Shown here piece by piece: positions 59,774-64,000 of a stretch of 64,000 nt of DNA. The stretch covers positions 1 through 64,000 of the forward strand of contig JAKPPT010000020.1 in the NCBI GenBank assembly GCA_029547205.1, read 5' to 3'. Both the position numbers and the translations under genes were made by a program. The first letter of the stretch is position 1; every line of letters starts with the position of its first letter. This DNA comes from Spirochaetota bacterium (GTDB lineage Bacteria; Spirochaetota; Spirochaetia; Treponematales; UBA12059). The notes below the pieces were generated by a model. It did not search any database and was not told the DNA's origin. It saw nothing but the letters and a program-made list of their open reading frames with translations.

Positions 59774-60565
59774 ATGATTCATACTGCATTATCATCGTCA
59801 TCATTTATAGATTATAGTCCCGATGAAATTCTGAAGCTTGCACAAAGGCTTCAGGTTGATGCAATTGAATGGACGTCAGATGGTTTTATTGATGAGGGTG
59901 ATACTGAAAAAGCCAGTGAATACATGAAAGCAACACTCTATTCTGGTTTTTCCGTTGCAAGCTATGGCACGCTTTTTAGAGTTTGTCAGCATGACGAAAC
60001 GATTTTTAAAAAAATTCTTGAAACAGCAACAGCTTTAGGAACGTCTACAATTCGAGTCTGGGCTCCTCAGGAAACTCACAATATTGCAAAAGAAGAGACC
60101 CTGTTTATTAAGACCAGTCAACGGTTAGGTAACCTAGCAGGTGATAAAGGAATTTGTCTCTGTTACAATCTCGATGCAGCATCAATGTTAAATACTTACA
60201 GTCGTGCTTCATATCTCATCAAAGAAATAGGTCATGAGTTTGTAAAACTAGCATGGGAACCTCTATTCACGATGCCTTTTGATGTAATTATGAATATTTT
60301 TACCGAACTCAAAGGTTACATTGGCATACTAACTTCTCGGTTTATTACTCCACAGGGGGAACCACGCAGTCTTTGTACCTATGAGGAAGAATGGAGTCAG
60401 TATCTCGATGCTTTTGATGAACAGTTCGACAGTCCAGATATGGCACGCTATGTAATTATCCGCCCATATCCTGGACTTCCTATGGATAAGCTTCAAAAAG
60501 ATATAAACATTATTAAAAAATATGCTGTTGCTTTAAGAAAATATAGGCGCCGTCGTATATATTAA
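59774..60565 (+). CDS. Sugar phosphate isomerase/epimerase-like TIM-barrel protein
   Basis: A 263-residue protein of the AP-endonuclease-2/xylose-isomerase-like superfamily. LAQRLQVDAIEWTSDGFID, LGTSTIRVWAPQETH and GICLCYNLDAASM follow the barrel strands, with HEFVKLAWEPLF and a basic tail (LRKYRRRRIY). Metal-binding Glu and His positions are only partly evident. The exact substrate is unknown, though its neighbour (a GH31-like gene, divergent) hints at sugar handling. ATG is behind AGGAAAGG. Its 3' end overlaps mazG by 4 bp (convergent). Confidence 0.78.
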   Translation: MIHTALSSSSFIDYSPDEILKLAQRLQVDAIEWTSDGFIDEGDTEKASEYMKATLYSGFSVASYGTLFRVCQHDETIFKKILETATALGTSTIRVWAPQETHNIAKEETLFIKTSQRLGNLAGDKGICLCYNLDAASMLNTYSRASYLIKEIGHEFVKLAWEPLFTMPFDVIMNIFTELKGYIGILTSRFITPQGEPRSLCTYEEEWSQYLDAFDEQFDSPDMARYVIIRPYPGLPMDKLQKDINIIKKYAVALRKYRRRRIY

Positions 60566-61496: not shown

Positions 61497-61524
61497 TTGA
61501 ATTTAAAAATGTGTGCATTATACT
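61497..61524 (+). promoter_or_regulatory. Sigma-70-type promoter of the sensor-kinase operon
   Basis: TTGAAT (61497-61502) and TATACT (61519-61524), spacer 16 bp, the same hexamers as the promoter at 7397. A start near 61531 would give a leader of about 68 nt to the ATG at 61599. Confidence 0.55.
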
Positions 61525-61561
61525 TAAATATGTATCAGATTCAAGCAGACTTAATTAAAAT

Positions 61562-63163
61562 GTGGGCAGATTGCATAGTCTCAGGGAGAAATCTGCTGAT
61601 GAAAAAAAAGGTTTACTTTGTATTTTTCTAGCTATCTTCACGTTAATAAGTTCTGAAAACAGTATATATGCTGATGATGTAAACAATATCATTGTTGGTG
61701 TCTATAAAAACCCGCCCAAAATAAATGTTTCTTATACTGGTGAACCCGAAGGAATTTTTATTGATATTTTACAGGCAATAGCAAAAAAGAATCGATGGAA
61801 TCTCATGTATGTATATGGCACATGGAATGAGCTTTTAGATAAGTTGGAAAGAGGAATTATTGATATCCTTCCCGATGTAGCATATTCCCATGAACGTGAG
61901 AATTTTCTTGATTTTATGCACATCCCGGTATTACTGTCGTGGATTCAGGTAGCTGTAAAGCCAGGTACCATCTATAATGATTTAAAAGATCTGGAGGGGA
62001 AAAAACTTGCGGTGTTAAAAGGATCTATCCAGGAAGAACTATGCAAAGACATACAGACAAAACTGGGAGTATCAATAGAACTATTGAGCTATGGAACGTA
62101 TGATGACCTTATTAGTGCAGTAGATAACGGTGATGCTGATGGTGCTGTAGTGAGTAGATTTTATGGATATACACAAAACAATAAAAAACTTGCAATAACA
62201 CCTATTATTATTGAAACAACGACTTTGCATTTTGCTGTTAAAAAAAATACAAATAAAGAGTTACTCACAGTAATAGATGGAGAACTGACTCGAATGTTCA
62301 ATGATCCTCGTTCAGAATATTATAAATCACTGTCATGGTGGCTTCATGAGAGACCGATTTCTTATATTCCTCGCTATTTAATCATTCTCATTCCAATTGT
62401 TGTAGCTTTAATGATTGCTTTTTTACTTTTTTCACTTTTATTAAAACAGCAGGTAAATAGAAAGACCAGTGCATTGCTCAATGCAAATAATAATTTAAAT
62501 GAGGCACTTGCATTAGTTAAAAACACTGAATCTGCTCTGGATAAAAATAAAATATATTTGTATGAGCTCCTGCATAGATCAAGAAATAATATGGCTGTAA
62601 TTTCCTCGTTACTGTATATTAACGCATGGAATACAAAAAATGATGCCGTGTTGCAGTATGCAGAAAATATTGATGCCCATATCGCAATAATGTCGCTTGT
62701 TTTTGGATTGGTTGAAAATTCTGAAGATTTTTCTTCAATAAGAATTAGTGAATTTATTAATGGTTTTATTGACCTATTTGTACAGCATAATACAAAGCGA
62801 AAATTTTATTTGACCTGTCCTCATATCATCGAAGATAAGCTGCTATTTGATATTGCGTTGCCATTGGGTTTTGTACTTTATGAGATGATAATCAGTATGA
62901 TAAATTTTCCAAAAAAAACCTTTAATGAAGAATATCTTAGAATAGAAATAGAATATAAAAAAATCAGCAATGAAGTTGGTTTATTCACAATTACTTGTTG
63001 TGGGGGTGGTAATAAATTAGAAAGCAAGGATTTCTTTAATGGTGATAGAATGAAACTAATTATTGATCTTCTAGAAAAACAGTTAATTGGCAAAGCTTCT
63101 ATTATTAATGGCACTACTGTCCAGATAGAATTTGCTCTTATACGGTACTCATTACGGGTATAA
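61562..63163 (+). CDS. Sensor kinase with periplasmic solute-binding domain and HisKA_2-type kinase core
   Basis: About 520-533 residues. The signal segment (LLCIFLAIFTLISSENSIYA) is followed by an SBP_bac_3-type domain (VGVYKNPPKINVSYTGEPEG, IFIDILQAIAKKNRWNL, LEGKKLAVLKGSIQEEL), one TM (about 275-297), a coiled region and a HisKA_2 box (LLHRSRNNMAVISSLLYIN, the phospho-accepting His as in HHRVKNN). A short ATPase-like part follows (LGFVLYEMIISMIN, later CCGGGNKLES). The open frame begins at GTG 61562, which has no ribosome site. ATG 61599, behind AGGGAG, gives MKKK but is one base out of frame through an eight-A tract. The receiver gene follows after 8 bp. Confidence 0.85.
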   Translation: MGRLHSLREKSADEKKGLLCIFLAIFTLISSENSIYADDVNNIIVGVYKNPPKINVSYTGEPEGIFIDILQAIAKKNRWNLMYVYGTWNELLDKLERGIIDILPDVAYSHERENFLDFMHIPVLLSWIQVAVKPGTIYNDLKDLEGKKLAVLKGSIQEELCKDIQTKLGVSIELLSYGTYDDLISAVDNGDADGAVVSRFYGYTQNNKKLAITPIIIETTTLHFAVKKNTNKELLTVIDGELTRMFNDPRSEYYKSLSWWLHERPISYIPRYLIILIPIVVALMIAFLLFSLLLKQQVNRKTSALLNANNNLNEALALVKNTESALDKNKIYLYELLHRSRNNMAVISSLLYINAWNTKNDAVLQYAENIDAHIAIMSLVFGLVENSEDFSSIRISEFINGFIDLFVQHNTKRKFYLTCPHIIEDKLLFDIALPLGFVLYEMIISMINFPKKTFNEEYLRIEIEYKKISNEVGLFTITCCGGGNKLESKDFFNGDRMKLIIDLLEKQLIGKASIINGTTVQIEFALIRYSLRV

Positions 63164-63171
63164 GGTGTAAT

Positions 63172-63537
63172 ATGACATTTGTTATTATAGAAGATGAGTA
63201 TTTAATTGCTTTACATATGCAGCGGTGTTTGGAATCTGCAGGCCACATCTGTCTTGGGATTGAAGCTGAAGGTGATAAAGGCATTCGTTTAGTACAAGAA
63301 AAAGAGCCTGAAATTATTATTCTTGATATTTTACTTGCAGGAATGATGAGTGGCATTGATGTTGCAAAAGAGATAAGAAAATTTTCAAAAGCAATGATAG
63401 TTTTTACAACAGGTTATACTTCGTGCGAAATGCTTAGCAAACTTGAGTCCATCTCAGAAAGTGTAGTGTTTCCTAAACCGGTTTCACTTAATAAGCTTAT
63501 AAATTACATTGAAAAATTGAAACAAAATAATAATTAG
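63172..63537 (+). CDS. Response-regulator receiver, cognate to the sensor kinase
   Basis: A 121-residue receiver: acidic pair in FVIIEDEYLIALHMQR, phospho-acceptor in IIILDILLAGMMSGIDVA, Thr in VFTTGYTS and Lys in VVFPKPVSLNKLI. There is no output domain. It starts 8 bp after the kinase stop. Receivers partnered with HisKA_2 kinases often have this short single-domain form. Its output is unknown; no further regulator is visible before the window ends. Confidence 0.92.
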   Translation: MTFVIIEDEYLIALHMQRCLESAGHICLGIEAEGDKGIRLVQEKEPEIIILDILLAGMMSGIDVAKEIRKFSKAMIVFTTGYTSCEMLSKLESISESVVFPKPVSLNKLINYIEKLKQNNN

Positions 63538-63574
63538 ATTTGACAGGCTACATGTACTATTCTATATTTGAAAC

Positions 63575-64000
63575 ATGTCTCGAATAACAAATTTTCTTTC
63601 AAAGATGCTTATCCCGTCTCTGCTCATGCTAATTATTTTTGTGATTATTGCTTCTTTTAGCTGGAAGCTTGCTTTTAATGAGCCTGTTCCTGAGTTTGCT
63701 GCGTTTGATACTAATCTTTATTACAGTCCTGATTCTGTTTTAGAAAAATATCAGTGGTATAGCCCCGAACAGAGAAAATTATATGTTAGCAATGCGTTTA
63801 CATTCGACCTTGCATTTCCCATTTTATATGTATTGCTTTTGCTTACAGTATGCGCATTTTTTATTAAAAGACTTAAACAACCAAAATGGCTCATGGTTAT
63901 TTATATACTGCCTTTGTTGACAGGCATTTTAGATATAGCAGAGAATATCACTGTATCGTACATAATGTTGCAAGGGGTTGGTAAAACGAGTGCTTTGCTT
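63575..64000 (+). CDS. Multi-TM membrane protein (3' partial)
   Basis: ATG 63575 opens a frame of 142 codons that runs off the window end. MSRITNFLSKMLIPSLLMLI and FVIIASFSW form TM1. An outside loop follows (DTNLYYSPDSVLEKYQWYSP), then TM2 (FPILYVLLLLTVCAFFI) and TM3 (WLMVIYILPLLTGILDIAEN). No family identified. It starts 38 bp after the receiver stop and may be part of the same unit. Confidence 0.6.
   Translation, partial: MSRITNFLSKMLIPSLLMLIIFVIIASFSWKLAFNEPVPEFAAFDTNLYYSPDSVLEKYQWYSPEQRKLYVSNAFTFDLAFPILYVLLLLTVCAFFIKRLKQPKWLMVIYILPLLTGILDIAENITVSYIMLQGVGKTSALL

What the first reader, a model, noticed from the sequence alone, without database searches (positions are those of the whole stretch)
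61595..61640. Poly-A tract at the start of a sensor kinase: likely phase-variable or slippage-corrected start
ATG 61599 has a good ribosome site and would encode MKKK then the signal peptide GLLCIFLAIFTLISS if the tract had nine A instead of eight. With eight A the frame hits TAG after ten codons. The annotated frame can otherwise start only at GTG 61562 without a ribosome site. Slipped-strand mispairing or transcriptional slippage could switch this two-component system on and off.
Basis: partly seen in the sequence, partly recalled or inferred. Interest (0 to 1): 0.62.

Follow-up and report, generated by a model that had tools for sequence, protein, structure and literature searches.

The report
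Out-of-frame poly-A start, degenerate sensor kinase
A bacterial sensor gene has its best start signal one A out of frame in a run of eight As. This is most likely a slippage-type indel at its original start, a familiar kind of event, and one assembled genome cannot show whether it works as an on/off switch.

Summary
SD AGGGAG, ATG 61599 and an A8 tract (61602-61609) give MKKKVYFVFF-stop. The kinase frame lies at -1, and nine As would give MKKK-GLLCIFLAIFTLISS. ATG 61599 was very probably the original start: its SD energy (-8.2) is reached by about 1.4% of window ATGs, the in-frame alternatives (GTG 61562, TTG 61571) have no SD, and this is the only one of 44 long window ORFs without an ATG in its first 60 codons. 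No other long ORF body in the window is visibly broken at its 8-9-nt A/T runs (19 tracts). Among about 108 SD-ATG-A(>=8) sites in the order, 90 keep the ATG frame open and at most one resembles this case, so it is a singleton, not a conserved recoding device. No same-genus relative is held (closest homologues ~28% identical), so tract length could not be compared. New here: the 'kinase' has no recognisable HATPase_c domain (N-box Asn and G-box Asp replaced), while homologues keep it. Best reading: a one-A loss at the original start of an already degenerate sensor. Phase variation, slippage rescue and consensus error remain open. Precedents: swrA, inlA, vaa. Low interest.

The parts
61497..61524 (+). 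sigma-70-like promoter TTGAAT-16-TATACT
   Evidence: 9 of 12 matches, and fewer promoter-like sites in the region than in shuffles, so weak
61583..61588 (+). Shine-Dalgarno AGGGAG, 10 nt before ATG 61599
   Evidence: duplex energy -8.2 kcal/mol with an assumed 16S tail; 1.4% of window ATGs reach -8
61599..61631 (+). short frame from the SD-preceded ATG: MKKKVYFVFF then TAG
61602..61609 (+). A8 tract; with 61610 it holds the heptamer A AAA AAG (61604-61610) in the ATG frame
61559..63163 (+). long open frame (-1 relative to ATG 61599); in-frame starts only GTG 61562 and TTG 61571 before an ATG at codon index 82
61610..61672 (+). signal-peptide-like stretch GLLCIFLAIFTLISSENSIYA
   Evidence: read from the translation; no signal-peptide predictor was available
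61688..61960 (+). SBP_bac_3 sensor domain
   Evidence: E 2e-16
62564..62773 (+). HisKA_2 domain; His and HRxxNN motif present
   Evidence: E 7.8e-10
62830..63160 (+). degenerate remnant of the HATPase_c region: no N-box Asn, no DxGxG Asp (approximate bounds)
63172..63537 (+). response regulator receiver-only protein, 8 nt downstream of the sensor
   Evidence: E 1.8e-14; homologous receiver next to the sensor in L007 and L009

Best explanation
ATG 61599 with its SD is the original start of an SBP_bac_3/HisKA_2 membrane sensor. The assembled genome carries an allele with one A fewer than needed at a slippage-prone tract directly after the start codon. In this allele, normal translation stops after ten residues, so the sensor is off or made only at a low level through transcript or ribosome slippage at the A tract. 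Shown: the sequence, the frames, the SD, and the missing ATPase signature. Inferred: that the allele is real, that nine As was the ancestral state, and that it can revert as other A8/A9 tracts do. Loss of the catalytic ATPase residues suggests relaxed constraint on the kinase function, so a tolerated or recent loss allele is at least as likely as a selected switch.
For: SD energy -8.2 at ATG 61599, against -1.6 (GTG 61562) and -2.4 (TTG 61571); only ORF of 44 without an ATG in the first 60 codons. SD-ATG-A8/A9 is a standard in-frame start in this order (90 of about 108 sites) and in this genome (for example L055, L068, L076). The 13 codons between GTG 61562 and the tract score like intergenic DNA (7.6th percentile of coding segments). 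The body of the gene has ordinary codon statistics and no stop. HATPase_c is absent here but present above cut-off in three homologues. No other long ORF body in the window is visibly broken at an 8-9-nt tract, so a generally error-prone consensus is unlikely. Literature: 5' poly(A) tracts at swrA, inlA and vaa gain or lose one A reversibly (PMC2831843).
Against: There is a single assembled allele and no reads. An isolated consensus error at this tract cannot be excluded. Homologues have n-regions of roughly 10-15 residues and one (L007) has no in-frame ATG near its start, so a GTG or TTG start is not absurd. The coding score of 13 codons is weak evidence; the signal-peptide stretch also scores low.
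Confidence: 0.5

Rival explanations
1. True phase variation: the population holds a mixture of A8 and A9 cells, switching the sensor off and on by slipped-strand mispairing.
For: Tract length and position match known switches; swrA A9 to A8 about 1e-4 and A8 to A9 about 1e-5; vaa A8/A7 (PMC2831843).
Against: A8 tracts are common here (29 A/T runs of 8 or more in 64 kb), so the tract is not exceptional. No allele data. The product lacks a recognisable ATPase domain.
Confidence: 0.15
2. Slippage rescue: RNA polymerase adds an A, or ribosomes shift -1 at A AAA AAG, giving MKKKGLLCIF from the A8 gene.
For: A -1 shift at the heptamer gives exactly the expected N-terminus. Slippage on runs of eight As is suggested for some insertion-sequence genes (PMC1088944).
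Against: No downstream structure (z -0.02). The same ATG AAA AAA AAG start is used in frame elsewhere, e.g. L055 in this genome. The arrangement does not recur in relatives.
Confidence: 0.1
3. Consensus or assembly error: the real genome has nine As and the gene is intact at its start.
For: Draft genome in 151 contigs. A single-base homopolymer change restores an ideal start. Singleton frameshifts are often sequencing errors or recent indels (PMC3711429).
Against: No comparable break at the other coding A/T runs of 8-9 in the window.
Confidence: 0.2
4. Translation really starts at GTG 61562 or TTG 61571 and the tract is ordinary Asp-Glu-Lys-Lys coding sequence; the SD-ATG is a decoy or leader.
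For: The frame is open from 61559. GATGAAAAAAAA as D-E-K-K occurs inside several ordinary genes of this genome. Some window genes have weak SDs.
Against: Non-ATG start, no SD, intergenic-like codons, and an unlikely coincidence with a strong SD-ATG-lysine start.
Confidence: 0.17

Closest known systems
swrA of Bacillus subtilis (5' poly-A, 8/9 A switch; PMC2831843)
   Same: A8/A9 run at the 5' end of a gene; one A decides the reading frame
   Different: Switching was measured there; here there is one assembled allele and an unrelated gene
inlA 5' poly-A tract of Listeria monocytogenes (A7 in frame, A6 stops after residue 8; PMC2831843)
   Same: Frameshift at the very 5' end leaving a product of about ten residues
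   Different: Shorter tract, different gene; allele frequencies and reversion known
vaa of Mycoplasma hominis (A8 on, A7 off; PMC2831843)
   Same: 5' poly-A indel controls one protein
   Different: Surface adhesin; switching demonstrated
Transcriptional slippage at A8-A9 runs (Thermus dnaX, insertion-sequence genes; PMC1088944)
   Same: A run at which an added A can change or restore a frame
   Different: Those are internal and experimentally or comparatively supported; here no conservation
SBP_bac_3/HisKA_2/HATPase_c sensor kinases of the same order (L007-L010)
   Same: Domain order and length; adjacent receiver protein in L007 and L009
   Different: The window protein has no recognisable HATPase_c and lacks N-box and G-box residues

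Membership tests
Phase-variable gene by poly-A slippage | Homopolymer whose length sets the frame, near the 5' end | tested here: met
   A8 after ATG 61599; nine As join the start to the long frame
Phase-variable gene by poly-A slippage | More than one tract length in one population or among strains | not testable with these tools
   No reads; no other same-genus genome; pattern absent from genome contigs and viral contigs, where own records may be left out
Programmed -1 frameshift (dnaX type) | Slippery heptamer in the zero frame | tested here: met
   A AAA AAG at 61604-61610
Programmed -1 frameshift (dnaX type) | Downstream stimulatory structure | tested here: not met
   Fold energy equals shuffles, z -0.02
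Programmed -1 frameshift (dnaX type) | Frame transition conserved in relatives | tested here: not met
   Nearest homologues show no such tract at their starts; the arrangement recurs in at most one of about 108 sites
Histidine kinase (HisKA_2 class) | Phospho-acceptor His domain | tested here: met
   HisKA_2 E 7.8e-10
Histidine kinase (HisKA_2 class) | HATPase_c with N-box Asn and DxGxG | tested here: not met
   No HATPase_c hit; not among the 29 places in the genome; motifs replaced in the alignment

The most novel reading that the evidence does not exclude
A start-codon-proximal A tract acts as a real switch or leaky slippage gate for a sensor that has lost its ATPase residues, so that a non-catalytic sensor is made in only a fraction of cells.
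Probability: 0.1. Interest if true: 0.45.

Novelty: new member of a known kind. Interest (0 to 1): 0.2.

Why it matters
If the tract varies in nature, it would add a two-component sensor in a poorly known lineage to the list of genes switched at 5' poly-A tracts. Otherwise it is a caution: gene callers will pick GTG 61562 and hide a frameshifted start, and the protein should not be annotated as a working kinase.

Tried and rejected
Searches for the protein in genome contigs and viral contigs, and for the exact tract region with variable length, found nothing. A search of the genus returned only the window's own genome. RNA structure as a frameshift stimulator was rejected. A recurrent out-of-phase start class was rejected (two -1-frame cases; I read L094 as an ordinary overlapping start, L160 remains unclear). 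A structure prediction was not run, because a single sequence would give a poor model of the degenerate domain.

Full report
Observation. The sequence at 61580-61640 is as described: AGGGAG, ten bases, ATG 61599, eight A, then GG. The ATG frame reads MKKKVYFVFF and stops at TAG. The long frame, open from 61559 to 63163, is the -1 frame; with one more A the start would run into GLLCIFLAIFTLISSENSIYADD.

Which start. I scored anti-SD pairing (assumed 16S tail CACCUCCUUA) for candidate starts of 44 long ORFs in the window. ATG 61599 scores -8.2 kcal/mol; about 1.4% of all ATG triplets reach -8. GTG 61562 scores -1.6 and TTG 61571 -2.4. The gene is the only one of the 44 with no ATG in its first 60 codons; its first in-frame ATG is at codon index 82. 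The 13 codons from GTG to the tract score like intergenic DNA (7.6th percentile of coding segments; 54% of open intergenic segments score at least as high), though 13 codons are few. ATG+A8 occurs 31 times in the 2.65-Mb genome; in several of these it is a normal in-frame start of an apparently exported or membrane protein (L055, L068, L073, L076), and in many others it is internal Asp-Glu-Lys-Lys coding sequence.

Is it an error-prone assembly? There are 29 A/T runs of 8 or more in the window; 21 lie in the bodies of long ORFs, 19 of them outside this gene, and all those ORFs run on unbroken. That selection is of ORFs that are already long, so it is a limited test, and one isolated error stays possible.

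Is it a device? In 394 genomes of the order, SD-ATG-A(>=8) is widespread, with few matches for the reversed control pattern. I read the frames at about 108 distinct sites (30 returned loci and 80 fetched stretches): 90 keep the ATG frame open; 4 are internal codons; 12 have neither frame open for 60 codons; 2 have the -1 frame open, of which L094 looks like an ordinary overlapping start (my reading) and L160 is unclear. The arrangement is therefore not a recurrent programmed class. Downstream RNA folding is no better than shuffles. The same lysine-codon start, ATG AAA AAA AAG, is used in frame at L055.

Strain comparison. No other genome of the genus is held. The closest homologues in the order are about 28% identical, and scans of genome contigs and viral contigs found nothing (own records may be left out there). 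So tract length among strains could not be tested.

What the gene is. Pfam gives SBP_bac_3 (E 2e-16) and HisKA_2 (E 7.8e-10), with a receiver-only response regulator 8 nt downstream. A homologous receiver lies beside the sensor in L007 and L009. The window protein has no HATPase_c hit even at E 10 and is not among the 29 HATPase_c places found in its genome, whereas L007, L008 and L009 pass the cut-off. In the alignment the homologues read NELVTNS or similar and D-D/N-G-x-G, while the window protein reads YEMIISM and CCGGG. It is therefore unlikely to be a conventional autophosphorylating kinase.

Interpretation. The simplest account is a one-A indel at the original start of a sensor whose kinase function is already degenerate. 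Poly-A indels near the 5' end of genes are well known: swrA 9/8 A, inlA A7/A6 and vaa A8/A7 (PMC2831843), and transcriptional slippage on runs of eight or nine As is documented or suggested (PMC1088944). Singleton frameshifts are mostly indels or errors (PMC3711429). Reads would settle between fixed allele, switch and error.

Noticed in passing
62830-63160: The sensor lacks N-box and G-box residues and any HATPase_c hit, unlike its homologues; a likely pseudokinase.
   Followed up: partly
61530-61631: The ATG 61599 frame is open 40 codons upstream and contains ATG 61530 and ATG 61560, giving a possible 33-residue leader MYQIQADLIKMWADCIVSGRNLLMKKKVYFVFF.
   Followed up: no
63540-63568: Strong sigma-70-like site TTGACA-17-TATATT (11 of 12) just before the next gene at 63575.
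   Followed up: no
59774-60565: A 263-residue protein without any Pfam hit at E 0.001.
   Followed up: no
L160, around base 620 (minus-strand site): SD-ATG-A8 in another genome of the order with a short ATG frame and a 101-codon -1 frame; a possible second out-of-phase start.
   Followed up: partly
L197, around base 618: SD-ATG-A8 lipoprotein-like start MKKKHGVFFGMTIFIPAAVFTLAGC that stops at once after the lipobox cysteine.
   Followed up: no
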